Shown in pieces: positions 42,993 to 59,564 of a stretch of 64,000 nucleotides of DNA. Below the pieces are notes generated by a model, which was not told where the DNA came from, ran no database searches, and saw only the letters and a list, made by a program, of their open reading frames with translations. Where the stretch lies: the NCBI RefSeq assembly GCF_034067285.1, contig NZ_CP139286.1:1364001-1428000 (forward strand), given 5' to 3'. This DNA comes from Acinetobacter pittii. Its GTDB lineage: Bacteria; Pseudomonadota; Gammaproteobacteria; Pseudomonadales; Moraxellaceae. Both the position numbers and the translations under genes were made by a program. Every line of letters begins with the position of its first letter. Position 1 is the stretch's first letter.

Positions 42993-43009
42993 GGGCGACT
43001 ATTCCTAAA

Positions 43010-43465: not shown

Positions 43466-43700
43466 TCAGATTGCTCCAGCTCTAAAGTTGCAAATATTCT
43501 TTGCAAGATGTCTGCAAAGTTTGCTTATTATGGCATATGTTTCTACAATTTTTTTATAATTTGTTTTCATCGTCGCAGAAAGGGTATACCAAATTCGGCT
43601 TATATATTGTAAATTTTGCGATGATTTAGCAATGTTAAAAAATGACAAAATTTCAAGTAATTTAATGGAGCTTATTTTAAACTGAATTGACAAAAACAGT

Positions 43701-45026
43701 TCATGTATTTTGTGTAACGACTATAGAGTTCTCTCCAATCACTAATAGTTCATTCCACCGAGTCAGATAGTTTTTTGAACGGTGGCATTGTTTCATATGC
43801 CAAGATGAACTTCGAGAATGATAACCGACTTGTAAATAGTGACTACCGAATCGGTTACGAACTGTGCTGAGCGTTTGCATCAATTGTTGTCTTTGATGAA
43901 TTAACTCCAGAGGTTGCCATAAATCATCAATGTGATGTTGACGGGGATGCAAACCACAAAATAAAACTCCAATCTTAATATATTTCTTATTTTCTTTATA
44001 TAAAACATCAATTTGTTGCATTGCTGCTTTTGTTAGTATGCATAGATCATCTGTTGCATAATTTAAGCCTATCGCTTGAGATGATGCTTTTTTATAAGGT
44101 GGTTTATCTATTTTTTCATAAAGCATGACTTGAATGCAGGCACATAGCTGCTCTTGTTTCATTAAACGGCGATGAGCACGGTTGAGATGGAAAATAAGTG
44201 CTTGTTTAATAATCTCAATACTGGATAAAGCTTGAGCAAAACTACGTGAAGCTAAAATTCGTTTTGTGACGATGGCAGGATCATCGAGTTGAATACAGGA
44301 TTGGCCTTTTAGCTCACGAATGGTACGTGCCATCACCACAGAAAAAGCTTTTGCTAAATGATGCTCATTGGCAAAAGTTAAGTCTAAGCATGAATAAATC
44401 TCATAGCTTCGTAATTGTTTGACCAATTGATAGCCAATTCCCCACACTTCTTTGACCGAAGTATTTTGCATGAGGTCTTCAAGAAGCAAAGGATCTAAAG
44501 TGATGAAATTACAAATTTTATTAAAGCTTGGAATCTTTTTAGCATAGTGATTGGCTAATTTTGCTTGAGTTTTTGAATATCCGATACCAATACAGCAAGG
44601 TAAGCTTAACCAATTTTCTAGAGTTTCTACGACTTTGGCACAGTAAGAGTGAATATCTATAGACTGTAGGTAAGGGGTAAGGCGAATAAAGCATTCGTCA
44701 ATAGAATAAGCTTCTAAATCATCGGGTGAGAAAAACTCCCCAAGTACTGAAAAAAAGCGACGCGACATCTCGGCATATAAAGTGTAGTTACTTGAATAGA
44801 CGTGTACACCTGCTTGAAGAGCGTCTTGCTCGATTTGATACCATGGAATACCCATTTTGATACCCATGTTTTTTGCTTCTTCACTACGTGATACAACACA
44901 TCCATCGTTGTTAGAAAGTACTACAACAGGCAGACCAATAAGTTTGGGGTTAAATAAGCGCTCACAACTGACATAACAATTATTAATGTCGACAAGCGCG
45001 TAAATTTCGCGGTGTGAGATTTCCAT
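43701..45026 (-). CDS. umuC: DNA polymerase V catalytic subunit UmuC
   Basis: A 441-aa Y-family polymerase. It has IYALVDINNCYVSCERLFNP with the first catalytic Asp, SIDECFIRLTPY with the Asp-Glu pair, and the thumb and little-finger regions (GIGYSKTQAKLANHYAK, VWGIGYQLVKQL). UmuC with cleaved UmuD copies past DNA damage. No umuD lies beside it; Acinetobacter is known to keep several separate umu genes. I use ATG 45026, which has GGGG nine bases upstream; ATG 45041 is possible. A UmuDAb-like damage box lies about 80 bases upstream. Confidence 0.95.
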   Translation of the reverse strand: MEISHREIYALVDINNCYVSCERLFNPKLIGLPVVVLSNNDGCVVSRSEEAKNMGIKMGIPWYQIEQDALQAGVHVYSSNYTLYAEMSRRFFSVLGEFFSPDDLEAYSIDECFIRLTPYLQSIDIHSYCAKVVETLENWLSLPCCIGIGYSKTQAKLANHYAKKIPSFNKICNFITLDPLLLEDLMQNTSVKEVWGIGYQLVKQLRSYEIYSCLDLTFANEHHLAKAFSVVMARTIRELKGQSCIQLDDPAIVTKRILASRSFAQALSSIEIIKQALIFHLNRAHRRLMKQEQLCACIQVMLYEKIDKPPYKKASSQAIGLNYATDDLCILTKAAMQQIDVLYKENKKYIKIGVLFCGLHPRQHHIDDLWQPLELIHQRQQLMQTLSTVRNRFGSHYLQVGYHSRSSSWHMKQCHRSKNYLTRWNELLVIGENSIVVTQNT

Positions 45027-45105
45027 TATGATTTGCCCCATTAAAAATATTGGTAAAACTACATATTGATATTGCTTTCATAAACACAGTGAGGTGGTGT
45101 GTTAA

Positions 45106-45126
45106 CTGAAAAAATTACATCTTGAA
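45106..45126. promoter_or_regulatory. UmuDAb/DdrR-type damage box upstream of umuC
   Basis: This 21-bp segment contains TGAAAAA and TTACAT and ends CTTGAA. It matches 17 of 21 positions of the palindrome that I recall for the A. baumannii UmuDAb repressor, whose halves read TTGAAAA and TTTTCAA. Its place before a umuC gene supports damage-induced control. Confidence 0.55.
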
Positions 45127-45239
45127 TATGTAACAAAATCAAGTTAACAAAGTTTCTAACGGAAAGCTAGAGGAGTTCTGCGGGTTTACCTCAAGTTAAC
45201 CATGGAAAAAATAGATAAGGGTTTAAAGTTTTTAATAAA

Positions 45240-45266
45240 AAAAGGAGATCGTATAGATCTCCTTTT
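45240..45266 (-). terminator. Terminator of the TonB-dependent receptor gene
   Basis: AAAAGGAGATC (45240-45250) pairs with GATCTCCTTTT (45256-45266), loop GTATA. On the minus strand it is followed by a T7 run, 27 bases after the receptor stop. Confidence 0.92.
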
Positions 45267-45292
45267 GATGAAACATTCTAAGTTATTTTTGA

Positions 45293-47530
45293 TTACCACT
45301 TATGACTATAAGAAACTTTCAGCGTTGCACCATTTGCCACTAAATGGCTAGTGTTATCACTTGTTCTTAATAGTTGGCTGTAGAGAGGATAGTACTTACG
45401 GTTAAACATGTTCTCTAAACCGATCGTCACAGTATCTTTTTTGTTAAGCACAAAGCTACTAATTAAATCTGCTGTTGTATAAGTTTTTACATCGTAACGA
45501 CCAAAACCATTTACGCCATTCAATCGATAATCTTCTGCGCCAAAGTATGTGGCTTGCAGGCGATTTGTCCAAGTTTCAGTTGGGCTATAAGAAACGTAAG
45601 CTGTGAGTTTTAATGGTGGAATACGGAAGCCTGTCATGTCTTGTTCAGCACCGTTTTGCGGTTTTTCACGACCTTTCATCCACGTAACGCTACCACCCGT
45701 TCCCCAAATGTTCGCATCGTCCAGATAGTCAAAAGTTGCTTCCACACCAGTAACTTTTTCTTTGGTTCTAGCAAGTACTAGACCGTTATTGAATGATTGC
45801 ACAGCGCCTAGGTCAGAAGTAGAGTGGAAGACCGCTAAACTTGAAGAGAAGTTATTGAAGTTTCCTTTCCAGCCCAACTCGTAGTTATCTACTTTTACAG
45901 GCTCTAAGAATGACGAACCAAGGTTAAAACCTTCGCCAGCATTACGAATAATCAAACCTACATCAGGTAATTGGAAACCTTGGTTAAACGATGCATAAAT
46001 CGAGTTTTGATCATTTGGTGAGAAAGTCAAATTGGCATTGTATAACCATGCATCAGCTTTCACTTTTCCGCCTGGAACTGTATAAGGGTTAGTCTTGCCC
46101 AATTGTGATAATGGAACAAAGCTATCAATTTGGGCATAGCTATCTTCATAACGTGTACCAGCTTCTGCTGACCATTGATCATTAAAGCGGTGCTTTAACT
46201 GTACAAAACCACCGACACTTTGCGTGGTGAGCTCAGGCAAATAAATAAGCTTGCCAGTTTTTACAAACTCTAAGCCACCAGATTGATCATAAATTTTTTG
46301 ATCAAAAATATCTAAAGGCATTTCGCTTTTTTCACGGCTAAAGTCGCCCCCCCAAACCAATGAGGTATCCCCTAAAAACTCAAGTGGTGTGGTAACAGTT
46401 AAGCGGCTACCGAGTACGTTATTTTCTTGATAAATCTGATCGACTTGTCCACCACGATTTGCATTTTTTCGTGCATCAAATGGTGAAAAACGGGTAAAGA
46501 AGTCGCGGTAATAAATTTGAGCATCGACCTTATTACCAAAAAAGTCTTTATGGTTATAAGTTAAGTTGTAGATCTGGTTTTCGTTTTTATTTTGGTCTTT
46601 GAGCTTTAAGCCTTTAATGGCTTTAGCTGGTACGGTTCCGGCAGGGGCATTCTTCACACTTGGGTCAGATGCATAATCTGAGTCTTGCTCGGCATTGTAG
46701 TAATTTGCAGCAAACTGTAGATATTGGTTGTCATCAATATGATAACCAAGTTTACCGCCTACGCTGTAGCCATCGGAATCATATAAATCACCCTGACTTG
46801 GTTCAGGTGCAACACGGTCACCGCTTGCATCATACGGGCTACCAATACGTTGGTAACCAAAGTCGAGCGCATAATCAAAAGCGTTAAAGCTGCCTGTGAA
46901 ATATTGATGAATATCGCCACTTAAAGCATTAGAACGGAAATTTGTTAAAGGTGTTTGAAGTCCAACCACGGTTTTAGCTGTAGGTTCACCACCCGCAGCT
47001 TTTGTGGTAATTGAAATAATACCGCCAGCAGCACCACCACCATAAATTGCGTTACTGCCTCGAATCACTTCAATGTTGGCAATACTTTCAGGGTCAATTG
47101 CTGAAAGTCCGCGTGATGTGTCGCGGGTCAGGTTCATTGGTACGCCATCGACCAAGATGAGGGCATTACGGCCACGTAAAGTTTGGCCGTAATCGGTAAT
47201 GGTTCGGCTTGAATCTGACAGGCCCGGTACGGCTTTCGCTAAAACGGTTGCAATACTGCCAGATGAACCATTTCTTAAAAGTTCAATTTGCTTTTCATCT
47301 AGCTTGGTTACTTGCTTGGCAGAAGTAGAAAGTTCATCTGCACGTGAAGCGGTAATTGTGATTGTAGGTAATGCTTCAGGCTTTTTTTCAGCATCGGTGG
47401 CCTCAGAAGACGAGGCTGCAAAGGCTGAGTTTGAGAGAAAGATGGCCCCACCAAGTGAAAGGAGTGGAATAATATTTTTTACTTCAGACTTCCTCGTAAA
47501 AAGTTTGTGACTTTTTATCTTATTTCCCAT
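45293..47530 (-). CDS. TonB-dependent siderophore receptor
   Basis: A 745-aa outer-membrane receptor. Residues 1-38 are a signal peptide ending NSAFA. A TonB-box-like PTITITASR follows, then a plug with VLAKAVPGLSDSSRTI, RGRNALILVDGVPMN and VIRGSNAIYGGGAAGGIISI. The rest is a 22-strand barrel ending LKVSYSHKW. It would take up a ferric siderophore with energy from TonB/ExbBD. It is transcribed after the siderophore genes but has its own leader with a Fur-like box, and its likely ligand is the product of the adjacent locus. Confidence 0.92.
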   Translation of the reverse strand: MGNKIKSHKLFTRKSEVKNIIPLLSLGGAIFLSNSAFAASSSEATDAEKKPEALPTITITASRADELSTSAKQVTKLDEKQIELLRNGSSGSIATVLAKAVPGLSDSSRTITDYGQTLRGRNALILVDGVPMNLTRDTSRGLSAIDPESIANIEVIRGSNAIYGGGAAGGIISITTKAAGGEPTAKTVVGLQTPLTNFRSNALSGDIHQYFTGSFNAFDYALDFGYQRIGSPYDASGDRVAPEPSQGDLYDSDGYSVGGKLGYHIDDNQYLQFAANYYNAEQDSDYASDPSVKNAPAGTVPAKAIKGLKLKDQNKNENQIYNLTYNHKDFFGNKVDAQIYYRDFFTRFSPFDARKNANRGGQVDQIYQENNVLGSRLTVTTPLEFLGDTSLVWGGDFSREKSEMPLDIFDQKIYDQSGGLEFVKTGKLIYLPELTTQSVGGFVQLKHRFNDQWSAEAGTRYEDSYAQIDSFVPLSQLGKTNPYTVPGGKVKADAWLYNANLTFSPNDQNSIYASFNQGFQLPDVGLIIRNAGEGFNLGSSFLEPVKVDNYELGWKGNFNNFSSSLAVFHSTSDLGAVQSFNNGLVLARTKEKVTGVEATFDYLDDANIWGTGGSVTWMKGREKPQNGAEQDMTGFRIPPLKLTAYVSYSPTETWTNRLQATYFGAEDYRLNGVNGFGRYDVKTYTTADLISSFVLNKKDTVTIGLENMFNRKYYPLYSQLLRTSDNTSHLVANGATLKVSYSHKW

Positions 47531-47572
47531 TGTCTCGCCCTGAGAGTGATTTTAAATTTGTCGAATTATAAG

Positions 47573-47587
47573 TGAGAATGATTGTAA
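47573..47587. promoter_or_regulatory. Fur-box-like site upstream of the receptor gene
   Basis: TGAGAAT, G, ATTGTAA compared with the Fur 7-1-7 consensus TGATAAT-N-ATTATCA shows three mismatches. It is about 45 bases before the receptor start. Confidence 0.6.
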
Positions 47588-47683
47588 TTCACAATATCGT
47601 TGTTGGACAAAAAATAATAAAATTCGTTTTTATTAATTGTTGTGTAGAGGACCGTATTTCTATCGCTCTACACGACTGAAAAT

Positions 47684-48463
47684 TTATGAGATTTCCTTAT
47701 AAGAATTCAAATGATTTTGATGGGCACGGCGAATAATACTTCGGTCATCACCGAGTACAAAAAGCTGAACGGATTGTTGTTTCCAAGCTGCAATATCTTC
47801 AGGTTGTCGAGGAATAGCACAGAAATGTTTTTGGCTATTTTTAGTCTTTAAATACATCTCTTGAACTTTTTCTTTCATTTTGGGATGGCTAGTTTGCCAC
47901 GGCATTCCCATCGATTGAGAAAGGTCGGCAGCACCTTCCAGAATAATATCTATACCTTCAACTTTTAGAATTGCATCTAGTTGCTCCAGTCCTTCCAAGC
48001 TTTCAATCATGGCAATGACGACCGTTTCGTTTGCAGCCTGTTGAACAAAACTCGCTAAATCGTCCATGCCATAGCGATTTAACCTTGTCGAATTCAGCCC
48101 CCTTTGTCCAAGCGGCATGTAGTGACAATAGTTCACGGCCTCTTGTGCTTGCTGGGCATTTTCAATACGCGGAAACACAATACCCGTTACCCCTGCATCG
48201 AGCAGAGGTAGAATCAAATGATTGGCATTTAATGGCACTCTCACGAAGACATCAAGCCTTATGGCTCTAGCAGCTAAAATCATAGTCTCGACTTGAGACG
48301 TACTAAATAAAGTATGTTCTAAGTCGATAATGATGAAGTCATAGCCGGCAAGTGCCAGTTGCTCGACATTAATGGGAGAGGCTACGGAACAAAATATTCC
48401 GTAGAGCGTCTCGCCGTGTGCTATTCGTTTCTTAAAAGAAATCGAATATTTATTCATATTCAA
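47684..48463 (-). CDS. SbnG-like citrate synthase (HpcH/HpaI aldolase family)
   Basis: The 259-aa protein is of the HpcH/HpaI aldolase fold: GYDFIIIDLEHTLFST, FVRVPLNANHLILPLLDAGVTGIVFPRIE and AMIESLEGLEQLD (read in parts). In staphyloferrin B synthesis SbnG makes citrate from oxaloacetate and acetyl-CoA in the cytoplasm, so that the siderophore does not depend on the TCA cycle. Position after the SbnE/F-like gene, with a 14-bp overlap, supports that role over sugar catabolism. A second ATG at 48457 is a possible start. Confidence 0.82.
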   Translation of the reverse strand: MNMNKYSISFKKRIAHGETLYGIFCSVASPINVEQLALAGYDFIIIDLEHTLFSTSQVETMILAARAIRLDVFVRVPLNANHLILPLLDAGVTGIVFPRIENAQQAQEAVNYCHYMPLGQRGLNSTRLNRYGMDDLASFVQQAANETVVIAMIESLEGLEQLDAILKVEGIDIILEGAADLSQSMGMPWQTSHPKMKEKVQEMYLKTKNSQKHFCAIPRQPEDIAAWKQQSVQLFVLGDDRSIIRRAHQNHLNSYKEIS

Positions 48464-51400
48464 TTTCCTTAATAAGACTAAGCGGGTTTGGTGTGGTTTG
48501 TACTCTTAGGCGAATTTCCGGAAGGAAACGGCGACTCGCCAGCTGTTCAATGTCGATAGTGTCATCTGTAAAGTTAAATAATTCATATCGTTCGCTAAAT
48601 TCTGGGTGAGCTTCTTTATGCTGATTGATGATGGTTCTTAACATAGTCCAGAATTTGATTTCATCAAAGTCATAATGTTCATTTAAGAAAATTGCTAACT
48701 CTGCCAAATTTACAAACCACAGCGCATCTTGAGTAAAGTCTCTTAACTCATTTGGAGAATGGGTTTCCAAGAAAGAGTTCGGGTTAATTTTGGCATGTTC
48801 TTTCGGCGCATCTTGCAAGTTAGGTAAAAGGTCGGGCTCGCGCAACAGATGACGACTAAAACGAATGCCATCATGGAAATCTTTCAAAGCAGCTTTAACA
48901 GGTAAGCCATTTTTATGAATGAGCACCATGTTTTGTGCATGTGACTCTAAAGCGAGGCCGTGGCACCATAAAATATGCATGATCGGTAAATAAGCATTGG
49001 TGAGTAACTTTTCTAACCAGAACTCGATCCCGTACTCTTGAATCCACTCATCAATTAAAGGTTTTTGGTCTGTATCGAGTTGCATTAGACCGGTTACTGG
49101 CGTTGCTGATTCACCTTCTTTTAAGTAACTGTAAATACTTTCGCGCCAAATGCAGGCGAGTGCGCCGTATTGAACTGGAAGAGCAATTGGCTGGTTAATT
49201 GAAAGACCGCCAATCTCTCTTAAAATAACAGGTTTGCGTTGTTTTTCTAAAATATGATCTTGCTCAACAATGTTATAAAGCCAGTCACTCATTTTTGCAG
49301 CATTTTGAACGGTATGCGGTGCCAATACACGAGAGGTAGAAGTATTAACCAAGTTCATTGCCAATTTGAGAGAAAGCGCCGAGATATCACTAATATTTGA
49401 TAAGGTTCGAATTGACTGCTGTGGTAAATAGGTTGGACCTTCAATATCTAACGGAATGATGAGTTGGTTGCTGATTGCATCTTGATAATACAGTTCAATA
49501 ATTTTATCCCACTGCCAAGGATGAATTGGGGTGAGGATATAATCTTTAAAATCTACATTGTTATCTTTCAATTGATCGTTAATGACTTGTAGATCTTTCT
49601 CTGAAAAATGCTGTTTATAAAGCTGTTCTAAGTTAATTGTTTCACTTAAAACCAGTTTGCATAAACTGTTATGAGTCGCGACCCATTGAACCGTAAAACC
49701 TTCAGAAAGCTCGGGTGCATATTTCTGGTTTTCCTTTAAATCGAAGCCGATACGAGATTTAAAACTTGGATGATATAAATGCGCATTGGTAATTCGTGCT
49801 TCTTGTTCTAGGTAAGGCAAGGTTCTTAAAGGTTGAGCAGGTGCTTGGCTTAAAGTTTGCGTATGTTTAACGTAAGTTAAATTGAGTTCATCATTAAAGT
49901 TTTGCCATTTCACAGGATCAGCTTCAATAATATTTTTGAGGTCGGCAAGTAGTGTTTTTAAGTTAGGGCGAGTTTCAGTGTCTAACGTAATATCAGAACG
50001 GACTAAGCTTGAAGGATCTAACTTAATTCGTTTGAAGCTGAAATGTCTCTTGGCCGCGCAAGTATAAAAAACTGTATCGGAAATATAGAACTTGATCTGA
50101 CCTTTAGAAAACTCGTATTTAAAAGTATTTTCAAAAATGAGTGCTTCTAATAATTGGCCCATCACGCGATTTTCCGCAAGGGTTTTATAATTGGTTTGTT
50201 GCGTTGGTTGAAGAGGGCAAAGCGCTTCTGCGCCGCGATATTTATAAATAGGGTTTTCAACTTCAATCCAGATAGGATTGCCACCACTGTGGTAGAGCGT
50301 ATTTAACATATTTGCCTTGATTGGTAATGTGAGTGAATGAATTAATAAATCGCGGTACTGCTGACCTTTTGCGCTAAAATTTTCTTGTGTGAGCGTAAGA
50401 CGGGTGGCTTGCCAAAGTTCAGATTCTTCAATCACGGTAACTCGTGCAATTGCACTGATGAGATGAGCAATGTGATTGATCACGAGATAATATTTTAAAA
50501 AGGTCCATGCATCTTTTTGAGAGAACCAAACAGTACTATCTTCAGAAATAGATGAGTTGTCTTCTATCATTTCTGGAACAATACTAATGCCTTCCATATC
50601 TCGAAGAATAAGGCGATGTGGATAGCCGTTTTTAAATTCCATCAAACTGTTTTGCATATGCGCTTCTACGCTAATACCTTTATTTGCAAACAACTCAATT
50701 AATGGAATAAGTGAAACTTTAACGTACTGTTTCCACCAAAAGGTAATGAAGTCTTTGGCATCTTTCGATTGTAAATTTTGATTTGGGGCAGCTTGCTGAA
50801 TGAAGCTTAAAAGTGGGATTTCATGATGTTCGTTTTCTTCAACCAAGCCGCCGAGCATTCTGGTATTTTCTAATACCTCTGGCGTGAGTCCTGCTCGATA
50901 AATAATGCCAAATGAACTTTCAAGCTCAGGAATTTTGACTGTTTTTGCTTCTAACTCTGGCAGAATCACAAGGTCGGGATATTGCTCATTAATCTTATGA
51001 TTGATAATGATTTTGCTTGCATCAATGGCACGCTCCATTTCATCCATTGGGTTATTACGAATGAAACTGGTAATTCGTACATCAATCGAGAGCTTTAAGA
51101 ACAGGTTCGATTGAGGTAACCACACGGTACGAACGGATGAAGTAGGCCACACTGTTTGACCTAAAGCACCTAGATAAATAACGTCTTGGTTATCTAAATG
51201 TTTCTTTAAAGATGGATGTTGAAGTAAGAAGTTGGCTTGCCAAGGGTGAGTTGGCATCAGCTCATAGTTTGCGAAGTTTTCTTGCAAACGCTCTTTTGCG
51301 GTCTCTAAAACTTCATCTTCAATATGGTAAGAAGGCTGTTCTTCACTTACCAGCTTTTGAATTAGAGAAGAATGAACCGCGAAGTAGTGGAGTTGGAAAC

Positions 51401-51977
51401 ATGCGCCTAACTCAGGACTATACTTTTTCATGTCTTCTTTAGAAAAACCTAAATTGGCTTTAGAAGTCACATGAAAAGGATGTCCATATAACATGCCTTG
51501 TTCGGTTGCCTGAAAACCGCTTAATGCTTTAGTTGCTGATTGGGAAGGCTTATTTTCTAAAAAGAATTTTGTATTCTCGATACTATTAGCAATATCAAAA
51601 TACAGGTTCTTATTTTGTTTTTTATCTTTAAATAAGCTATTCAGCTCATCTGTAATCAGCTTCACTAAATTTTTAGGGTCGGTAAGCGAGTCAAATGTAT
51701 TGTTGCTTAAGTTTTGTAGGCTAAAACCACGTTGATATCTATGATAACCAGTGGTGGATAGATGTTGAACTGCGCCATAAACAACTGTGTTAGATGCATT
51801 AAATGTATAAGCAAAATATAGGGTGTCTGGGCGCTCCGTATACAGTGTGAATAAAGGAGAATCTTGAGCTGGAATAATGTGCTCTTCAAGATTCACTTTA
51901 AGTTCACGAAAGAAAGTATTCAGGTACTGTTCGAAAAGTTTATAAGACCATGCATCTGTTGTAATAATTGAGTTCAT
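48450..51977 (-). CDS. SbnE-SbnF fusion, double NIS siderophore synthetase
   Basis: One unbroken 1175-aa frame with two IucA/IucC synthetases. The N-half (to about 590) has GHPFH (165-169), MPTHPWQ (His244) and PTSSVRTVW, and follows S. aureus SbnE as I remember it. The C-half has YHPSFKSRIGF, TPIHPWQ (His819), QQSIRTLS, NTSTSRVLAPHT, LALESHAQN and ALKDFHDGIRF and follows SbnF. Each half has its own adenylate-binding motifs, so both look active. NIS synthetases join citrate or its derivatives to amines using ATP. The start overlaps the exporter stop (ATGA), so it is translationally coupled. Confidence 0.9.
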   Translation of the reverse strand: MNSIITTDAWSYKLFEQYLNTFFRELKVNLEEHIIPAQDSPLFTLYTERPDTLYFAYTFNASNTVVYGAVQHLSTTGYHRYQRGFSLQNLSNNTFDSLTDPKNLVKLITDELNSLFKDKKQNKNLYFDIANSIENTKFFLENKPSQSATKALSGFQATEQGMLYGHPFHVTSKANLGFSKEDMKKYSPELGACFQLHYFAVHSSLIQKLVSEEQPSYHIEDEVLETAKERLQENFANYELMPTHPWQANFLLQHPSLKKHLDNQDVIYLGALGQTVWPTSSVRTVWLPQSNLFLKLSIDVRITSFIRNNPMDEMERAIDASKIIINHKINEQYPDLVILPELEAKTVKIPELESSFGIIYRAGLTPEVLENTRMLGGLVEENEHHEIPLLSFIQQAAPNQNLQSKDAKDFITFWWKQYVKVSLIPLIELFANKGISVEAHMQNSLMEFKNGYPHRLILRDMEGISIVPEMIEDNSSISEDSTVWFSQKDAWTFLKYYLVINHIAHLISAIARVTVIEESELWQATRLTLTQENFSAKGQQYRDLLIHSLTLPIKANMLNTLYHSGGNPIWIEVENPIYKYRGAEALCPLQPTQQTNYKTLAENRVMGQLLEALIFENTFKYEFSKGQIKFYISDTVFYTCAAKRHFSFKRIKLDPSSLVRSDITLDTETRPNLKTLLADLKNIIEADPVKWQNFNDELNLTYVKHTQTLSQAPAQPLRTLPYLEQEARITNAHLYHPSFKSRIGFDLKENQKYAPELSEGFTVQWVATHNSLCKLVLSETINLEQLYKQHFSEKDLQVINDQLKDNNVDFKDYILTPIHPWQWDKIIELYYQDAISNQLIIPLDIEGPTYLPQQSIRTLSNISDISALSLKLAMNLVNTSTSRVLAPHTVQNAAKMSDWLYNIVEQDHILEKQRKPVILREIGGLSINQPIALPVQYGALACIWRESIYSYLKEGESATPVTGLMQLDTDQKPLIDEWIQEYGIEFWLEKLLTNAYLPIMHILWCHGLALESHAQNMVLIHKNGLPVKAALKDFHDGIRFSRHLLREPDLLPNLQDAPKEHAKINPNSFLETHSPNELRDFTQDALWFVNLAELAIFLNEHYDFDEIKFWTMLRTIINQHKEAHPEFSERYELFNFTDDTIDIEQLASRRFLPEIRLRVQTTPNPLSLIKEIEYE

Positions 51978-53179
51978 TCTTGTGCCTCTTTTAAAATTGT
52001 ATCCATTAAGAATCTGTTCAAAATCACCACTAATCCCGCACCGATAAAAAATAGTGAAGTGCAGATTAATGCAGCGGTAATATTGAAAAATGAGTAGGTG
52101 AGGGTGATGGTGATTGGGCCAATAAGTTGCCCTAAAACAAAGGCACTGTTAGAAATACCAATCACTTTTCCTTGGCTTTGAGCGCCAGCTTTTAGAGACA
52201 TTGTGTGTAAGATCGAAGGAATCAAAGCTGCAAAGCAGAAACCTTGTATGAGTCGTAATATAAGAATCAGCCAGAGATTAGAAACCCAGATCAATGCAAA
52301 AATTGTGATGCCACAAATTAAAGATGCATAAACGAAGTTATTAAAAGAATCTCCTTTATGGTCATTTCGTTTTCCCCAATAGGTTGCTGCAATAAAAGCC
52401 GCGCCCCACGAGAGTGCATGAATTGTTCCTGTTAAGCTTGCAGCAGATAACGATGAATGAATGCTCTGGCTTATTTCACTAATGTATAAAACAAAGCAAG
52501 ACACTAAGCCAAAGCCGCCCGCTTGAACCAAAATACCGGCGCTTAACCATGAAAAAATCGTTCTATCAAAGAAGGTTGGAAGCTTAGATTTCTCTTTGGT
52601 TTTTGACGCTTCGGTTTTAACGGGATTGGTTAATACAAATGACGCAATCAAAATTAAGGTCATCACAACAAATGCAGTCGCGTTAAGTAATACTTCAACT
52701 CTCCACTGATCCATAAATATCCCACCGAGAACCGGACCACATAGGCAAGCAAGCGCAACACTACTTTGTAGTTGCCCAAAAGCGGCACCTCGTTGTTGTT
52801 CATTGGAAAGATATGAAACATAGGCATTTAAAATCACGGAAAGACCGCAAAACCCGAGTAAAATTCGCGCAAAAATAAATAGGTATAAATGCTGGGCGCT
52901 CGCCATAAGCAATATTGAAATACAGAAACCAGCCAAAGAAAGTAACAAGGCTTTTTTATGGCCGAATGTGTCGGATAGATGACCCACAATCGGTGCTGTA
53001 AATAAACTGCCAATAGCCGGAGCTGCGAGTGCCAAACCTGCCCAGATAGTGGGAGCACTCATATGCGCCGTCAGTTTTTCCATATAAAGCGGCATGATTG
53101 GAATAAGTACCATAAGCCCAAAAGTGGAAAAAAACTGACAGAGCAAAATAATGAAATGATCTAGGCGAGATGAGCGCAT
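51974..53179 (-). CDS. SbnD-like MFS siderophore exporter
   Basis: A 401-aa inner-membrane protein with 12 helices. The first loop motif GHLSDTFGHKKALLLSLAG is an MFS signature, and QFFSTFGLMVLIPIMPLY starts the first helix. Position between the SbnC-like and SbnE/F-like genes equals that of sbnD in S. aureus, so it should export the finished siderophore. It begins four bases after the upstream stop and overlaps the next start by four. Confidence 0.88.
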   Translation of the reverse strand: MRSSRLDHFIILLCQFFSTFGLMVLIPIMPLYMEKLTAHMSAPTIWAGLALAAPAIGSLFTAPIVGHLSDTFGHKKALLLSLAGFCISILLMASAQHLYLFIFARILLGFCGLSVILNAYVSYLSNEQQRGAAFGQLQSSVALACLCGPVLGGIFMDQWRVEVLLNATAFVVMTLILIASFVLTNPVKTEASKTKEKSKLPTFFDRTIFSWLSAGILVQAGGFGLVSCFVLYISEISQSIHSSLSAASLTGTIHALSWGAAFIAATYWGKRNDHKGDSFNNFVYASLICGITIFALIWVSNLWLILILRLIQGFCFAALIPSILHTMSLKAGAQSQGKVIGISNSAFVLGQLIGPITITLTYSFFNITAALICTSLFFIGAGLVVILNRFLMDTILKEAQE

Positions 53180-53182
53180 GAT

Positions 53183-54877
53183 TTAGATGTCCATGGTCTC
53201 ATAGCTAGAAACACACAAGTTCTGATAAGGGTTTGGTGTGGTTCCGATTTTACTTGGCATGCCTGTTGAGTCACTTTCTTGCGCGAGTAAAGGGGTAAGT
53301 AGCTGTTTGAATGGCCAAGTCTTATTGTCAAAAAGATAAGTTTGAATTTGTGATTTTGTTTGCTCTGAAATCGATTGGGTTTCTACAAAATCTTGAATAA
53401 TGTCTTGAACCATTTCCCAAAAATCGCTTTCTGTACGATCTGTATATTTCAAAGTCGCTAAAGCAATTGGGTAGAGGTTAATTTGAATCCCTAAAGTAAT
53501 GAAGTAGTTAAATAAGTCCTCATTTTTAGTAAAGATAAGATTGTTCGGCGTACTGGTATCAATGGTATAGATCGGAGGTATAAAACCGCTTTCTTCAATG
53601 GCTGTTGTACATATTCTTAAGGTATCGTGGTCTCGTAAAATAAAGCATTTAAACTTATTATTTTCATAACACACCATGGTGTTTTGCCCGTGGCATTCCG
53701 GCATGATGCCTTTTGCCCAAAGCGTTAAGAATGTTTGAATAAAATGAACACTTAAGTCTTTTAGTAATGACCATTTGTCACCTTCAATGCCCAATGTTTC
53801 CCAAGGGTCAACATAAGTACAGCTTAAAGCTGACATGGTAATAGGAGAGACATTTTTATCTTGGCAAAAATCAGGTAAATGTCTGACTTGGCAACCGATT
53901 ACACCTAAATTTTTTACAATCGGCTCTTGTTTACCCAACACCCACCAATGCGTTTCATTACTCAAAAAGAGACGATTTTTTAATAAAGAAGTTTCATTAA
54001 TGACTTCATTTAAAAAATCATAAGCCGTATGCCCATTCATTAAATAACGACCTGGCATAGAGCGGATTGCGCCTAATGTTTTAGCATTGGTCGAGAGTTT
54101 TAAATGTAGAGTAGGGTTTGCGTTATGAATAAGCGTTCTTAATGAAGAAGTCGGTGAGCCAATTGTCGTGACATGGTTCAGGTCAATAGCGCCGTACTTA
54201 TTTTCATCAAACTTTAAATAGCGATGTTGAGTCTCTAACAAAGGCAGGGCTAAGTAGTCATCTGAAAGCTCAGCCATTTTTTCAGTAATATGCTTGTCCT
54301 CAGCTTCTGATAACAGAAGCTCTTTATGAGGAATCGATTCCATATTATTGATGACGTCATCTTTCTTAAAAGCCCACCAATACACCTCAATTTCTTTTTG
54401 AGTTGTGAGTGGTGCAAGTTCACCTTTTGAGTGAGCGAACGGATGAAATGGACGGTCGGCTACCAGCGAGAGCAGTTCGCTAGTAACTAAAGGCGATGAA
54501 AATGAAAGTGCTGACTGTAAAATTTGAGGAATTTTTTCAGCCGTTACTAAGTTGTCAAGCCAATAATTAATTGCTTTCTGACGGTGTGGTGACGGCCACC
54601 AAGACGCTTGGGTTAAATAGTTAAAAACTTCAGAAATAGAAATTTTAGACGTCGTATTGTTTAAGAGGTTATAAAGCAGAACTTCGGGTTGGGTGACATA
54701 GAAAGGATTTACACCATCTACTTTTAAACAGTTTAAATAGAGTTCCAACTCATCATTGAGAGTTATTGCCAGATGCGGCTTTTTATAGGAAATATGATCT
54801 TTAAAATCTCCATAATTCTCCATGTAGAGAGCATCTATCGTTTTTTGTAGTTGTGCTGTGTAAATCCGATCTAACAT
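53183..54877 (-). CDS. SbnC-like NIS siderophore synthetase
   Basis: A 564-aa IucA/IucC-family protein. It has RPFHPFAHSKGEL, GSPTSSLRTLIH (adenylate loop), HLKLSTNAKTLGAIRSM, GIMPECHGQNTMV and CFILRDHDTLRI, and ends with SKIGTTPNPYQNL. In staphyloferrin B synthesis SbnC, a type B enzyme, attaches 2-oxoglutarate as the last step. Third place in the sbnA-sbnB order supports this role. The frame opens at 54952 inside the sbnB-like gene; I take the ATG at 54877, downstream of that gene's stop, with AGGA upstream. Confidence 0.85.
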   Translation of the reverse strand: MLDRIYTAQLQKTIDALYMENYGDFKDHISYKKPHLAITLNDELELYLNCLKVDGVNPFYVTQPEVLLYNLLNNTTSKISISEVFNYLTQASWWPSPHRQKAINYWLDNLVTAEKIPQILQSALSFSSPLVTSELLSLVADRPFHPFAHSKGELAPLTTQKEIEVYWWAFKKDDVINNMESIPHKELLLSEAEDKHITEKMAELSDDYLALPLLETQHRYLKFDENKYGAIDLNHVTTIGSPTSSLRTLIHNANPTLHLKLSTNAKTLGAIRSMPGRYLMNGHTAYDFLNEVINETSLLKNRLFLSNETHWWVLGKQEPIVKNLGVIGCQVRHLPDFCQDKNVSPITMSALSCTYVDPWETLGIEGDKWSLLKDLSVHFIQTFLTLWAKGIMPECHGQNTMVCYENNKFKCFILRDHDTLRICTTAIEESGFIPPIYTIDTSTPNNLIFTKNEDLFNYFITLGIQINLYPIALATLKYTDRTESDFWEMVQDIIQDFVETQSISEQTKSQIQTYLFDNKTWPFKQLLTPLLAQESDSTGMPSKIGTTPNPYQNLCVSSYETMDI

Positions 54878-54894
54878 TTTAGTTATTCCTATTC

Positions 54895-55908
54895 TTATAA
54901 AAGCGGTAGAACTGTGCCAACGTTTTGTTCTTGTGCGGCATTGAAGAACCACTTGGCGCAGACAATGTCATCAATCGCCATGCCCATTGGGTTGAGCAAA
55001 ATGATTTCATCTTCATGTTCGCGGCCGTTTTTATGACCAATAATGATGTCGCCAAGTTCGGCATGCAGTTTTTCACGGCTGAATAAGCCATCTTCAACGA
55101 GTACGTTGATGACTTTCTTTTCTCGGTTTGATTGGTCCCAGTCATCTACAATCACTTTGTCTACTTTTAAGAAGACTTCGGGCTCAATATCCATAATTGA
55201 AATATTTGAAACAAAGCAGCCTTTTTTAAGCCATTCAAATGGAATGTAAGGTTTATCTGAAACGGTACAGGTAATAAGGACATCGGCTTGCTCAATTGCA
55301 GACTTAGCGCTGTCATGAATTTCAATTTCTAATTGCAGATATTCCGATAAGAACAACGCTTTGAGTTTTGCAGCCGCTTCAGGGTTCACATCAAATAAAT
55401 GGATTTTTTTCACTTGAGCATATTGTTCAAGCACAGTTTTAATCTGCATTTGGGCAATTGGTCCGCAGCCAATTACGGTAATGTCTGAAAAGTCTTTTTT
55501 CGCTAGATATTTAATTGAAACACCCGTAATTGCAGCAGTTCGCATGGCACTAATTAAGCTGCCTTCCATCACCGCGACCGGATAATTTGTTTCTGAGTCA
55601 TTTAAAACAATCAGTGCGCTAGCACGAGGAATATTGAATTTTTTAGGGTTATGTTGTCTTGAGCCAATCCATTTAATTCCAGCAATCGGGTCATTGCCAC
55701 CTAAATAGCAAGGCATAGCAATAATGCGGTCAGCAATATGGTCGGCACCTTGCCAGCGAAGGTATGGTTTTAAGGGTTGTACAAACTGTTTATTTGCATG
55801 CAGGGTTAAACCTTCAGTAATCGCTTCAATAAATGAATTACTATGATTTGCGCCCAGATTTAATAAATCTGATTGACTTAAATAGCGAAGGGTAGCCAAA
55901 TTGCTCAT
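54895..55908 (-). CDS. SbnB-like dehydrogenase (ornithine cyclodeaminase family)
   Basis: The 337-aa product has an NAD-binding loop GCGPIA (147-152) in VIGCGPIAQMQ and the family blocks MEGSLISAMRTAAITGV and ISIMDIEPEVF. In S. aureus SbnB oxidises the SbnA product N-(1-amino-1-carboxyethyl)glutamate to 2,3-diaminopropionate and 2-oxoglutarate, two building blocks of staphyloferrin B. Place after the SbnA-like gene, 21 bases away, fits. The alternative, true ornithine cyclodeaminase, is less likely in this context. Confidence 0.9.
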   Translation of the reverse strand: MSNLATLRYLSQSDLLNLGANHSNSFIEAITEGLTLHANKQFVQPLKPYLRWQGADHIADRIIAMPCYLGGNDPIAGIKWIGSRQHNPKKFNIPRASALIVLNDSETNYPVAVMEGSLISAMRTAAITGVSIKYLAKKDFSDITVIGCGPIAQMQIKTVLEQYAQVKKIHLFDVNPEAAAKLKALFLSEYLQLEIEIHDSAKSAIEQADVLITCTVSDKPYIPFEWLKKGCFVSNISIMDIEPEVFLKVDKVIVDDWDQSNREKKVINVLVEDGLFSREKLHAELGDIIIGHKNGREHEDEIILLNPMGMAIDDIVCAKWFFNAAQEQNVGTVLPLL

Positions 55909-55929
55909 GAATATGTCCTAAGGAGAAAG

Positions 55930-56934
55930 TTAAACAACATTTTGTAAAGTAAGGTTTTCTTGGCGTCGTAAGTTTCGATTGAAGTGACGCTTCTTGATCA
56001 TTTCGAACCATTCATCTTCATAAACCAGATCGAGATAACGGTCGCCACGATCAGGCAACAACGTTAAGACGCATGAACCTTCTGGAATGGTTGGAATCAG
56101 TTTTTTGATGGCTGAAATAGATGAGCCGCTCGAACCGCCTGCAAAAATTCCTTCATGTTCAAGAAGCTCTCTGCAACCGAGTGCCGACTCATAGTCATCT
56201 ACATAAATGACATCATCAATTTCATCGGGGGAGAGTAGTGGGGGGACAGTACTTGCACCAATGCCAGGAATTTCGCGTGGACCAGATGTACCACCGAACA
56301 ACACAGAGCCGACGATATCGACTGCGATCACTTTTAATTCTGGAAATCTTTCTTTAAGGCGACGAGATACGCCCATAATCGTGCCTGAAGTGCTCGCCCC
56401 AATCACGAGGTAATCAATTTTGCGGTCAATTTGATTGAGGATTTCTTCTGCTTCACCAAAATAGTGGCTTTTCCAGTTGTTTGGATTTGCATACTGATTA
56501 ATCCAGACAGCATTCGGCAGTTGTTGGCAGAGTCGTTTTACAGTGTCAATTCTGGTTTTTAAGTAACCGCCGTTTTGGTCTTTTTCAGAGACCATTTCGA
56601 TATTGGCTTTGTAGAGCTTCAACATTTGTAAATTTGCTGAAGCAATTTTCGGGTCAATCACCGCAGTAAATTTTAATCCATAGATTTTGCATGCCATTGC
56701 AAGAGCAATAGCTAAGTTCCCTGACGAACTTTCAACAATATGACTATCCTTATTGATGACTCCAGATTTCAGACCTTCCTGTAGCATGAATAATGCTGGA
56801 CGGTCTTTAATACTTCCTCCTGGGTTTAACAATTCCATTTTCGCAATCACTGAGACTGATTGATGCGTGAATAGCCTTGATAGTTGTAATAGTGGCGTTT
56901 TACCTATGCATTCGAGAATATTTTCATGGATCAT
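55930..56934 (-). CDS. SbnA-like 2,3-diaminopropionate precursor synthase
   Basis: The 334-aa PLP enzyme is of the cysteine synthase fold: IGKTPLLQLSRLF, Lys43 in NPGGSIKDRP for the PLP Schiff base, ESSSGNLAIALAM, NQYANPNNWKSHYFG and TLLPDRGDRYLDLVY. The last two are shared with SbnA as I remember it and distinguish it from CysK. SbnA joins O-phosphoserine and glutamate. It is the first gene of the cluster, preceded by a Fur-like box. Confidence 0.92.
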   Translation of the reverse strand: MIHENILECIGKTPLLQLSRLFTHQSVSVIAKMELLNPGGSIKDRPALFMLQEGLKSGVINKDSHIVESSSGNLAIALAMACKIYGLKFTAVIDPKIASANLQMLKLYKANIEMVSEKDQNGGYLKTRIDTVKRLCQQLPNAVWINQYANPNNWKSHYFGEAEEILNQIDRKIDYLVIGASTSGTIMGVSRRLKERFPELKVIAVDIVGSVLFGGTSGPREIPGIGASTVPPLLSPDEIDDVIYVDDYESALGCRELLEHEGIFAGGSSGSSISAIKKLIPTIPEGSCVLTLLPDRGDRYLDLVYEDEWFEMIKKRHFNRNLRRQENLTLQNVV

Positions 56935-56967
56935 GGTAGATCTTCTCAGGTTTTTATGTGGTGTGAA

Positions 56968-56982
56968 TGATAATGATTATTA
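56968..56982. promoter_or_regulatory. Fur box of the siderophore operon
   Basis: TGATAAT, G, ATTATTA matches 14 of 15 positions of the 7-1-7 Fur consensus TGATAAT-N-ATTATCA. It is 34 bases before the sbnA-like start. Confidence 0.8.
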
Positions 56983-57506
56983 ATTTAATTATGATTACCA
57001 TTTGTGACAAGATTGTTGCTGTTTGTAACTCAAAAAAGGAGATAGTTAGAGGAATTTTCACTAATTTTTTTTAGGTAATTATTTGAATCGTAATATTTAA
57101 GTTTTATAGAAGGATAAATAAATAAATCTTTTTAAATATAACCACATAGGCAATAAATTACTTTTAAGCTAAAAAAATTAATTTAATTAAGACGTCTGTT
57201 TGAAATTACTTCGAAGAATTAAAAAGAAATTGATGACCAGACCCACATCAGTTATGTATCACTATTTTGTAGAGAACATAGCTAAGATGAAGGCTTAAAA
57301 AGAGAGGAATATTTGAAGGCTTTCTTAAAAGGCTGAGAATGATTAACTGAAATTGACTAAGTGGCAGTTATTGATATGAAAATGTCTGAAAATGATATGC
57401 TTAGATAGATATGATCATTTGCATAAGCACTGTATTTTCAATGGATCAGTTGAGTCCAGAAAGTATAGTAATGCGTGTTTCGCATTTTGTCTTATGGGTC
57501 TTTCAA

Positions 57507-57538
57507 GCTGTCTTTGTCACAAAAGACAGCATTTTTAT
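57507..57538 (+). terminator. Orphan plus-strand terminator
   Basis: GCTGTCTTT (57507-57515) pairs with AAAGACAGC (57522-57530), followed by ATTTTTAT. The T-run is on the plus strand only, so it does not simply end the leftward nasS transcript. Confidence 0.65.
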
Positions 57539-57558
57539 ACTGATTTGACCCAGATAGT

Positions 57559-58581
57559 TTATGAAGAATATCGCTGTTTGGCTTGATTATAAGCCTCAAG
57601 ATTAATGCATTGAGTTCCCAAACTTGTGATTTGTGCTTGGTCGATTTGAAGCTCATCCCATTTTTGCATTTGTTCGAGCAGCCAGTAAAAATCTTCTACT
57701 TTTGGAAGTGCACTTTCTTTTACTAAATGACGGACAATATCCTGAATCATGAAATATTTATCGACATGTACTTCTTCAGAACAATGAAAACGAACGATTC
57801 CAGACTCAACCAATAATTTTAAAATTGGCGCAAAGTCTTGTAACTCGCTCAACTCTTGTTGGGCTTTCATGATTGCGGCGGTGAGCGCGACGAGCGTTTG
57901 TGGATGCTGCTCCGCCCATTCTTGCGTTACGGCTAAAACCTTGTCAGCGACAGATGGAATAACGTTTTGGCTTGAGCAAATCATTTTACTTAAACCAAGA
58001 AGCTCACCTTGGGTATTCCAAGGCTCACCTACACAGAAACCATCAATCACATGTTTATCCAGTGCTTCGACCATGTATGGTGGCGGTAATGTTTTGAGCT
58101 GAATAGACTGTGCGATTTTTGGATTTGCTAAAGCCAACCATTCTCTTAAACAATAATGGTGAATAGAATGCTTAAACACATGCGCTAAAGAAAGAGGATG
58201 GCCTTGTTCAAGATAGCTCGCCACTTTTTGTGCTGTTACTTGTGCGGTGTCATTTTCTTGAATTGCAAGTTGACGAGTAAGCTTTTGACTTAAGCTAATA
58301 AAAGCACGGTTTTCACTTAAAACCAGCGATGTTTGTAGAGGTGTACCAATTTGATCTGCGCCTACAGCCGCCGCAGGTAACATTGCAGATAAGCAATGGG
58401 CTGCATCCAATAATCCAAAAGCAAGACGGTCGCGCAGACTCGCCCACGAGGCTTCTTTAACTAAAGTAACTTCTAAACCTTCTTCTTCAAAGAAACCTCT
58501 TTGCTTTGCCCAAAGCAACGCAAGACAATCAAGCAAAGGAATATAACCGAGTTGTAATTGAGTCTTTTCTAATCTGCTCAT
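57559..58581 (-). CDS. nasS: NasS-like nitrate sensor (NrtA/CmpA family)
   Basis: A 340-aa protein of the NrtA/CmpA ligand-binding fold, without a signal peptide, so cytoplasmic: LQLGYIPLLDCLALLWAKQRGFFEEEG at the start (read in parts), and FGLLDAAHCLSAMLPAA. In Azotobacter, Paracoccus and others NasS holds NasT inactive until nitrate or nitrite binds. It directly follows nasT on the same strand, which supports the role. The start is the first ATG, touching the nasT stop. Confidence 0.88.
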   Translation of the reverse strand: MSRLEKTQLQLGYIPLLDCLALLWAKQRGFFEEEGLEVTLVKEASWASLRDRLAFGLLDAAHCLSAMLPAAAVGADQIGTPLQTSLVLSENRAFISLSQKLTRQLAIQENDTAQVTAQKVASYLEQGHPLSLAHVFKHSIHHYCLREWLALANPKIAQSIQLKTLPPPYMVEALDKHVIDGFCVGEPWNTQGELLGLSKMICSSQNVIPSVADKVLAVTQEWAEQHPQTLVALTAAIMKAQQELSELQDFAPILKLLVESGIVRFHCSEEVHVDKYFMIQDIVRHLVKESALPKVEDFYWLLEQMQKWDELQIDQAQITSLGTQCINLEAYNQAKQRYSS

Positions 58582-59172
58582 TTATTCATCCTTTAGTTGA
58601 TTGCCAAGTAATTTTTGAGCGTCAAGTAAACGCCGTGCCATTTCTCCAATTGTAATGCGGTGGCTCATCGCATTTTTTCTAAGAAGCTGAAATGCAGTTT
58701 CTTCAGGTAGGCCATGCAGTTGCATCAGTAGCACTTTGGCTTTTTCGACATCCTTGCGGTCAGCAAGTTTGGTTTGAGCTTCTTTTAAATCACCTTCGAG
58801 TTTTTTGTGCTTTTTATATTGCTCAATTGAGATTTCTAAAATGGTATGTAAGCGGGAAGGGTCGATGCCATCCACAATATATGCAGTTACTCCCGCATCG
58901 ATGGCTTGTTTAATGGTGTCTTTATCAGAATTTTTGGTAAATAGAACTGTAGGCAGGTCATAACTACTGACACAACTTTCAATAATGTCACGATGGGGAT
59001 GATCCATATCAAGCAAGATGACATCAGCTTGTAAATGCTCCAGGCGGAAGATATTCAAATGATCCAAAGTAAGGCATGCGACTACTTCAAAATCATTTTC
59101 AAGCAAACTTTTTCTTATATAGTCGGCTCGCGCATGATCATCATCAATAAGGGCTATTTTGAGTTTTGGCAT
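58582..59172 (-). CDS. nasT: NasT-like ANTAR antiterminator
   Basis: The 196-aa protein has an N-terminal receiver-like domain (LKIALIDDDHARADYI, VILLDMDH) and a C-terminal ANTAR RNA-binding domain (KDVEKAKVLLMQLHGLPEETAFQLLRKNAM, read in parts; residues about 130-190). NasT, when freed from NasS by nitrate, binds a hairpin in the leader of nitrate assimilation mRNA and allows transcription to continue. The divergent nitrate transporter gene has a leader with a suitable hexaloop. Confidence 0.92.
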   Translation of the reverse strand: MPKLKIALIDDDHARADYIRKSLLENDFEVVACLTLDHLNIFRLEHLQADVILLDMDHPHRDIIESCVSSYDLPTVLFTKNSDKDTIKQAIDAGVTAYIVDGIDPSRLHTILEISIEQYKKHKKLEGDLKEAQTKLADRKDVEKAKVLLMQLHGLPEETAFQLLRKNAMSHRITIGEMARRLLDAQKLLGNQLKDE

Positions 59173-59491
59173 AAGTTCAGAAAATCAGGCTAAGAAAATG
59201 CGCCAATTCGACGCGTTTTTGTTATCAATTATTTAAGCAAGATTAATGCCATAGCAAACTAAAGAAAAAATCGAGCTTTATCGCTAAATTAGCATGCTTA
59301 ATGGCGCTACTGATCAATCTTGGTGCAAAAATGCGATTCATTTTGTAGCAGAGCGTATTTTTACCTGAACCCTATAAGTGTGCAAGGTTAGAGCAGTTAA
59401 AGATGTGAGAATGATCATTTTGATATTTAAAAAATTTTTATCTATATGAAAAATAATAATAAAAAAATATTAATTTAATTTTTAAAAAAGC

Positions 59492-59507
59492 TGGCATGCA
59501 AAATGCT
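59492..59507 (+). promoter_or_regulatory. Sigma-54-type promoter of the nitrate operon
   Basis: TGGCATG, four bases, ATGCT fits the RpoN consensus TGGCACG-N4-TTGCW, with GG and GC exactly 12 bases apart. A start near 59517 is expected. Control by NtrC under nitrogen limitation is inferred. Confidence 0.65.
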
Positions 59508-59519
59508 TATTCAATAACA

Positions 59520-59564
59520 GGTCGAAGACGACCATGAGTTTTAAAGACGGCCAATGAAGTCCGT
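59520..59564 (+). promoter_or_regulatory. Leader hairpins with an ANTAR-type hexaloop
   Basis: The first hairpin is GGTCG (59520-59524) with CGACC (59529-59533). The second is ACGG (59547-59550) with CCGT (59561-59564), closed by C52-G59 around the hexaloop AATGAA (59553-59558), which has A at position 1 and G at position 4 as ANTAR targets require. It is the likely NasT site. I could not find a clear T-run terminator after it. Confidence 0.5.

What the first reader, a model, noticed from the sequence alone, without database searches (positions are those of the whole stretch)
45293..57000. Staphyloferrin B-like siderophore locus in Acinetobacter
Seven clustered minus-strand genes run in the same order as S. 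aureus sbnA, B, C, D, E, F, G, followed by a TonB-dependent receptor gene. SbnA- and SbnB-like enzymes would make diaminopropionate and oxoglutarate, SbnG citrate, and the NIS synthetases would assemble them. The locus is distinct from what I recall of acinetobactin, fimsbactin and baumannoferrin. Whether it has been described in this genus I cannot check.
Basis: partly seen in the sequence, partly recalled or inferred. Interest (0 to 1): 0.85.

Follow-up and report, generated by a model that had tools for sequence, protein, structure and literature searches.

The report
Altered staphyloferrin B operon in Acinetobacter
This is an apparently working operon for an iron-scavenging molecule, related to the staphyloferrin B genes of Staphylococcus but missing one step, and one of its enzymes has changed in a way that suggests it builds a different variant of the molecule.

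Summary
Six minus-strand genes (sbnA, B, C, D, a fused E-F, G) and a TonB receptor fill 45293-56934 of a complete Acinetobacter chromosome, behind a Fur-box-like site. The operon is not new to the genus: PMC3179956 (2011) lists it for Acinetobacter sp. DR1 as 'Staphyloferrin B?' with sbnH missing, and PMC5658608 (2017) shows induction. The decarboxylase gene sbnH is absent in 10 of 10 named Acinetobacter loci, while an SbnH-like gene is present in 66 of 68 other loci (the other 2 are contig ends). In the same lineage the first synthetase domain, SbnE, diverged most. The arginine matching AcsD R501, proposed to hold the acceptor's carboxylate, is Phe in 17 of 17 covered Acinetobacter sequences and Arg in 358 of 358 covered SbnE-type sequences elsewhere. 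All genes are under purifying selection. I propose that SbnE now takes a carboxylate-free diamine, probably 1,3-diaminopropane, so SbnH is not needed and the product is a staphyloferrin B analogue (expected [M+H]+ 463.17, not 449.15). Against this: two related type A enzymes keep Arg, IucA has Tyr, and AcsD R501A is inactive. No chemistry was tested.

The parts
56968..56982 (.). Fur-box-like palindrome 33 bases before the sbnA start
   Evidence: One mismatch to TGATAATNATTATCA (consensus recalled); the only site in the window with at most one mismatch; 18 sites with up to three mismatches against 9.1 expected
55930..56934 (-). sbnA, L-Dap pathway synthase
   Evidence: TIGR03945 over cut-off; 5d84 SbnA E 3.7e-116
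54895..55908 (-). sbnB, L-Dap pathway dehydrogenase
   Evidence: TIGR03944 over cut-off; 4m54 E 3.3e-120
53183..54877 (-). sbnC-like NIS synthetase (open to 54952)
   Evidence: NF033583 E 2.1e-74, below cut-off
51974..53179 (-). sbnD-like MFS exporter
   Evidence: MFS_1 E 9e-44; position and homology to the D genes of other sbn loci
50223..51977 (-). SbnE half (residues 1-585) of the fused NIS synthetase, type A, AcsD/IucA-like
   Evidence: AcsD 2w02 E 7.2e-30, IucA 5jm7 E 5.1e-27; model of the fused protein mean pLDDT 85.6 matches NIS synthetase structures
50499..50501 (-). Codon 493 (Phe), aligned with AcsD Arg501
48450..50222 (-). SbnF half (residues 586-1175) of the fused NIS synthetase
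   Evidence: NF033586 SbnF E 7.3e-174, AsbB 3to3 E 4.2e-105
47684..48457 (-). sbnG-like citrate synthase (open to 48463)
   Evidence: 4tv5 E 5.3e-61
47531..47683 (-). Gap between sbnG and the receptor; most other loci have sbnH right after sbnG
45293..47530 (-). TonB-dependent siderophore receptor
   Evidence: TIGR01783 260.6 bits over cut-off; RhtA model 266 bits below cut-off; 53-56% identical to receptors beside sbn loci of Cupriavidus, Burkholderia, Herbaspirillum and Collimonas over nearly full length

Best explanation
An iron-repressed operon of the staphyloferrin B (sbn) family makes, exports and re-imports a citrate-based carboxylate siderophore. SbnA and SbnB supply L-Dap and 2-oxoglutarate, SbnG supplies citrate. 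The SbnE domain joins citrate to a first amine, the SbnF domain joins L-Dap to the other arm, SbnC caps the first amine with 2-oxoglutarate, SbnD exports the product and the TonB receptor takes up its iron complex. Unlike other sbn loci, this lineage lost the decarboxylase SbnH, and its SbnE domain lost the arginine thought to grip the carboxylate of the amino-acid acceptor. Most likely SbnE now takes a ready-made diamine without a carboxylate, probably 1,3-diaminopropane, so no decarboxylation is needed and the product is a staphyloferrin B analogue one CH2 larger. Shown: genes, order, purifying selection, absence of sbnH, residue changes. Inferred: enzyme functions (by homology), iron control, the diamine, the product.
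For: Gene identities. SbnH-like gene in 66 of 68 other loci, 0 of 10 Acinetobacter loci; only LysA in the own genome for PF00278. In a Methylobacterium operon with the same E-F fusion a sbnH mutant is CAS-negative (PMC9301485 passages). SbnE has the largest Acinetobacter excess in substitutions per site and 4 of 63 strictly invariant columns changed against 0-2 in nine other clades. R493 is Phe in 17 of 17 and Arg in 358 of 358 covered SbnE-type rows; it aligns with AcsD R501, whose R501K mutant lost 14-fold activity with L-serine but kept or gained activity with diamines (PMC3323832). Catalytic E438, R301, K554 kept. dat and ddc-like genes side by side in the genome. Rhizoferrin pathways switch between free diamine and amino acid plus decarboxylase (PMC7857480 passages). 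dN/dS 0.008-0.105.
Against: No chemistry. A type A synthetase of S. meliloti pSymA (RhbC, recalled) and the one in the baumannoferrin-like cluster keep Arg although their recalled acceptors need not carry a carboxylate, and IucA has Tyr with a carboxylate-bearing acceptor (recalled). AcsD R501A is inactive with every acceptor tested. K554, the other proposed carboxylate contact, is kept. E566G also occurs in a Staphylococcus SbnE. Column counts alone are weak (E against the other genes p = 0.097), and at the 90% threshold Methylobacterium loses more E columns (12/112) than Acinetobacter (6/96). By ratio SbnB is more accelerated than SbnE (1.55 against 1.37).
Confidence: 0.5

Rival explanations
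1. SbnE still uses L-Dap and nothing removes its carboxylate: the product is a carboxylated staphyloferrin B (2-oxoglutarate-Dap-citrate-Dap, [M+H]+ 493.14).
For: SbnA and SbnB are kept and highly conserved; sbnH is absent.
Against: It predicts change in the SbnF and SbnC pockets rather than SbnE, but conserved columns changed are E 6/96, F 1/119, C 2/55, and the Arg proposed to bind the acceptor carboxylate is the one lost.
Confidence: 0.17
2. The product is true staphyloferrin B: another decarboxylase in the cell (LysA, Ddc or an unrelated enzyme) removes the carboxylate, either from citryl-Dap or from free L-Dap to give ethylenediamine.
For: The receptor is 53-56% identical to receptors beside beta-proteobacterial sbn loci; LysA- and Ddc-type genes exist.
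Against: No linked gene; 15 of 16 carriers have a single PF00278 match; acting on citryl-Dap would leave the SbnE change unexplained (the free ethylenediamine version would explain it).
Confidence: 0.17
3. SbnE now takes some other acceptor that is not a simple diamine, giving a shorter or differently built citrate siderophore.
For: The pocket changed at several positions.
Against: SbnC is kept under purifying selection (dN/dS 0.09-0.105) and needs a second amine to cap.
Confidence: 0.12
4. The operon is decaying and makes nothing.
For: A step required elsewhere is missing.
Against: Frames intact; dN/dS 0.008-0.105 for all genes in three close comparisons; in A. oleivorans DR1 the operon is induced together with higher CAS activity (PMC5658608 passages; that genome also has an acinetobactin-type cluster).
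Confidence: 0.04

Closest known systems
Staphyloferrin B (sbnA-I) locus of Staphylococcus aureus
   Same: sbnA to sbnG homologues in the same order
   Different: E and F fused; no sbnH, no sbnI; a TonB receptor instead of the sir transporter (sir recalled and in PMC3179956 passages); SbnE lacks the conserved Arg
sbnA-H loci of Marinomonas, Marinobacter and Zobellella (L051, L045, L058)
   Same: Nearest relatives in six of seven trees; same order and same E-F fusion
   Different: They have an SbnH-like gene and SbnE Arg
sbn cluster of Methylobacterium aquaticum 22A (PMC9301485)
   Same: E-F fusion, no sbnI
   Different: Has sbnH, and its mutant is CAS-negative
Acinetobacter sp. DR1 / A. oleivorans DR1 sbn operon (PMC3179956, PMC5658608)
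   Same: Almost certainly the same operon, sbnH missing
   Different: The papers' passages do not mention the E-F fusion (2017 calls sbnE missing) or the SbnE change
AcsD of achromobactin biosynthesis
   Same: Best solved match to the SbnE half by single sequence (E 7.2e-30); catalytic residues shared
   Different: AcsD keeps Arg501; its acceptor is L-serine
Baumannoferrin cluster of Acinetobacter
   Same: Also NIS-type and also built on 1,3-diaminopropane; a cluster of this kind sits at the same site in G067
   Different: Different gene set with an N-hydroxylase-like gene and three separate synthetases

Membership tests
Staphyloferrin B biosynthesis locus | SbnA and SbnB (L-Dap synthesis) | tested here: met
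   Both over curated cut-offs
Staphyloferrin B biosynthesis locus | Three NIS synthetase units SbnC, SbnE, SbnF | tested here: met
   Three IucA_IucC domains in two genes; SbnC and SbnF models match below cut-off
Staphyloferrin B biosynthesis locus | SbnG-type citrate synthase | tested here: met
   Best PDB match 4tv5 E 5.3e-61
Staphyloferrin B biosynthesis locus | SbnH decarboxylase | tested here: not met
   No such gene in the operon; single PF00278 and PF02784 gene in the genome is LysA
Staphyloferrin B biosynthesis locus | Conserved SbnE acceptor-site Arg | tested here: not met
   Phe493
Staphyloferrin B biosynthesis locus | Product is staphyloferrin B | not testable with these tools
   Needs mass spectrometry
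Baumannoferrin cluster | Amine N-hydroxylase, three separate NIS synthetases and FhuF-like protein | tested here: not met
   None of that set among the ORFs of at least 100 aa in 43000-60500; such a cluster sits at the same site in G067
Acinetobactin or fimsbactin clusters | NRPS genes | not tested
   No NRPS was searched for; the operon proteins match NIS families

The most novel reading that the evidence does not exclude
Acinetobacter makes a new siderophore, a homo-staphyloferrin B built on the genus's own polyamine 1,3-diaminopropane. It arose when the decarboxylase SbnH was lost together with a change of a conserved arginine in the amine pocket of SbnE: a natural rewiring of a pathway from 'amino acid, then decarboxylate' to 'take the ready-made diamine'.
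Probability: 0.38. Interest if true: 0.75.

Novelty: new variant of a known kind. Interest (0 to 1): 0.58.

Why it matters
Since 2011 the question mark behind 'Staphyloferrin B?' in Acinetobacter has had no answer in the papers I found (searches; open-licence papers only). The genomes give a sharp, cheap prediction: the three candidate products differ by 14 and 44 mass units. The operon is in 16 of 175 Acinetobacter genomes, and the named carriers are mostly species of the calcoaceticus-baumannii complex, so its product matters for iron biology in this group. It would also be a natural example of acceptor specificity changing in an NIS synthetase, at the residue that mutagenesis of AcsD had pointed to.

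Tried and rejected
A decaying operon was rejected. The E-F fusion as the novelty was rejected: it occurs in marine Gammaproteobacteria and Methylobacterium. So in that one genome (G137) a trans-acting enzyme is not excluded. The general rule 'Arg means carboxylate acceptor' was tested and does not hold across all type A synthetases. first showed 39 non-Arg rows at position 493: 38 came from cutting fused proteins at residue 650, which took the wrong domain, and one was a gap. redid it by profile (359 Arg, 8 Asp, 7 uncovered outside Acinetobacter); one search then sorted rows by domain type: 358 of 358 covered SbnE-type rows have Arg, 3 SbnE-type rows are uncovered, and 13 rows (8 Asp, 4 uncovered, 1 Arg) are SbnF-type. 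The one uncovered Acinetobacter-like row is P0034. A structure model gave the expected folds for the whole protein, but no coordinates were at hand, so it does not test the pocket.
Full report
What is there. The window is bases 1364001-1428000 of a single-contig 3.69 Mb Acinetobacter chromosome. The minus strand carries, in transcription order, sbnA, sbnB, an sbnC-like synthetase, an sbnD-like exporter, a 1175-aa double synthetase, sbnG and a TonB receptor. SbnA and SbnB pass their curated cut-offs and a named SbnA is the best solved match for the first. For SbnB and SbnG the best PDB matches are 4m54 and 4tv5, which I recall as S. aureus SbnB and SbnG. The two halves of the long protein are an AcsD/IucA-like type A domain and an SbnF/AsbB-like domain. 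A structure model of the whole protein (mean pLDDT 85.6, pTM 0.62) matches solved NIS synthetases over about 600 columns; every one of the 50 rows listed (of 58 at E <= 0.001) is such an enzyme. A Fur-box-like palindrome lies 33 bases before sbnA. To the right are nitrate/nitrite genes and to the left accC and an aroQ-like gene (recognised by eye).

Is it known? In part. PMC3179956 (passages) lists Acinetobacter sp. DR1 as 'Staphyloferrin B?' and footnotes that the sbnH homologue is missing. PMC5658608 (passages) reports the A. oleivorans DR1 operon, says sbnE and sbnI are missing, and finds it induced, with more CAS activity, on a long alkane. PMC11089254 (passages) notes an antiSMASH region with SbnA/SbnB in A. 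pittii S-30. PMC10483418, PMC9162365 and PMC13320182 do not contain the word staphyloferrin (term searches). I found no report of the product in the paper searches, which cover open-licence papers only and whose listings I saw in part.

Distribution. The fused gene is in 16 of 175 Acinetobacter genomes searched: the window's own, 14 others at 94-97% identity and one at 66% (77 of 175 have some NIS match). A named-genome scan found 301 relatives and kept the best 80, 78 distinct loci: 10 Acinetobacter (A. lactucae twice, calcoaceticus twice, nosocomialis twice, seifertii, pittii, stercoris, one unnamed species) and 68 others. All ten Acinetobacter loci have A-B-C-D-EF-G-receptor and no SbnH-like gene (L040 starts inside sbnA). 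Of the 68 others, 54 have an SbnH-like gene right after sbnG, 12 have one elsewhere in the locus, and 2 (L065, L110) end at the contig edge after sbnG. The detection used the window genome's LysA as query, so it finds the enzyme family, not SbnH activity. The window genome has one PF00278 gene, followed by what I recognise by eye as dapF, and 15 of 16 carriers have one PF00278 match; G137 has two.

Loss was probably derived. In trees of six of seven proteins (not SbnG; weak support, 67, for SbnB) Acinetobacter groups with Marinomonas, Marinobacter and Zobellella, whose clusters have sbnH (17 chosen taxa). In a Methylobacterium operon with the same fusion a sbnH mutant is CAS-negative (PMC9301485 passages), so sbnH is needed in such an operon where it exists.

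The enzyme before the lost step changed. Against the Pseudoalteromonas/Rheinheimera outgroup the Acinetobacter branch (two species used) exceeds its sister by 0.62 substitutions per site in SbnE, 0.38 in C, 0.35 in D, 0.20 in F and B, 0.14 in G and 0.07 in A; against the second outgroup G rises to 0.35 and the rest are the same. By ratio SbnB is higher (1.55) than SbnE (1.37), from a small base. Of columns at least 90% conserved in other loci, those changed in every Acinetobacter sequence are E 6/96, A 4/99, G 3/56, B 2/125, C 2/55, F 1/119, D 0/32 (51 loci for D, E, F, G and 49 for A, B, C; 17 rearranged or incomplete loci of 68 were dropped beforehand). These counts alone are weak (E against F p = 0.047, E against the other six p = 0.097). 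As a control, strictly invariant E columns lost in one clade: Acinetobacter 4/63; nine other clades 0, 0, 2, 1, 0, 0, 0, 0, 1. At the 90% threshold, however, Methylobacterium loses 12/112 E columns and also more than Acinetobacter in every other protein.

Which residue. I flagged R493F as a possible lost carboxylate contact before looking it up (note). Both the single-sequence and the profile alignment put it on AcsD R501, and the mutagenesis primers in PMC3323832 fit that numbering. That paper (passages and whole Discussion) proposes that R501 and K563 hold the L-carboxylate of the acceptor. R501K lost 14-fold activity with L-serine and kept or gained activity with ethylenediamine and 1,2-diaminopropane; R501A was inactive with every acceptor, explained there by R501 also positioning the base E442. 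In the window protein E442, R305 and K563 correspond to E438, R301 and K554, all kept. In one search, 17 of 17 covered Acinetobacter rows have Phe and 358 of 358 covered SbnE-type rows outside Acinetobacter have Arg. Staphylococcus roterodami and Ralstonia SbnE have Arg. The rows are not independent, and loci overlap database proteins.

Limits of the residue argument. A type A synthetase of S. meliloti pSymA (RhbC, recalled; the record is unannotated) and the type A enzyme of the baumannoferrin-like cluster keep Arg, and IucA has Tyr. So Arg is not a general sign of a carboxylate acceptor. The argument rests on a coincidence within one family: the lineage that lost the decarboxylase also lost the conserved pocket Arg of the enzyme that makes the decarboxylase's substrate.

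Which amine. dat (845 bits, over cut-off) and a group II decarboxylase gene lie side by side in this genome, the route to 1,3-diaminopropane as I recall it. Acinetobacter uses that diamine in baumannoferrin (PMC10483418 passage). [quoted passage not shown] Rhizoferrin pathways use either a free diamine or an amino acid plus decarboxylase (PMC7857480 passages). Expected [M+H]+: 463.167 with 1,3-diaminopropane, 449.151 staphyloferrin B, 493.141 undecarboxylated.

Working operon. dN/dS against A. lactucae, A. pittii and A. nosocomialis is 0.008-0.105 over all genes, SbnE 0.054-0.091. Against the more distant A. stercoris synonymous sites were saturated for six of eight genes or domains.

Side finding. 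In G067, listed as the same species, the same site carries a baumannoferrin-like cluster instead, yet keeps the sbn receptor gene and a 93-base remnant spanning the end of sbnEF and the start of sbnG. So the sbn genes were once there and were replaced, and that strain may still use the sbn siderophore without making it.

Noticed in passing
L128 (G067:C1:642800-660800) against window 44519-58386: Siderophore swap at one site: in a genome listed as the same species, a baumannoferrin-like cluster replaces sbnA-G, but the sbn TonB receptor gene and a 93-base sbnEF/sbnG remnant (86% identical to window 48419-48506) remain.
   Followed up: partly
   Followed up: partly
P0051-P0093: Many long proteins found with the fused query (named sources Pseudonocardiaceae and others) seem to be fused the other way, a SbnC-like domain before the SbnE domain.
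   Followed up: no
P0034: A UniRef entry from the nematode Ditylenchus dipsaci joins a TonB plug domain to an SbnE-like stretch 75% identical to the window; likely bacterial contamination.
   Followed up: no
L116 (G137): A LysA/SbnH-like decarboxylase with what looks like an acyl-carrier tail, on another contig than that genome's sbn operon.
   Followed up: partly
window 45293-47530: The receptor is closer to receptors beside beta-proteobacterial sbn loci (53-56%) than to those beside the operon's nearest relatives (39-44%), so receptor and synthesis genes may have different origins.
   Followed up: no
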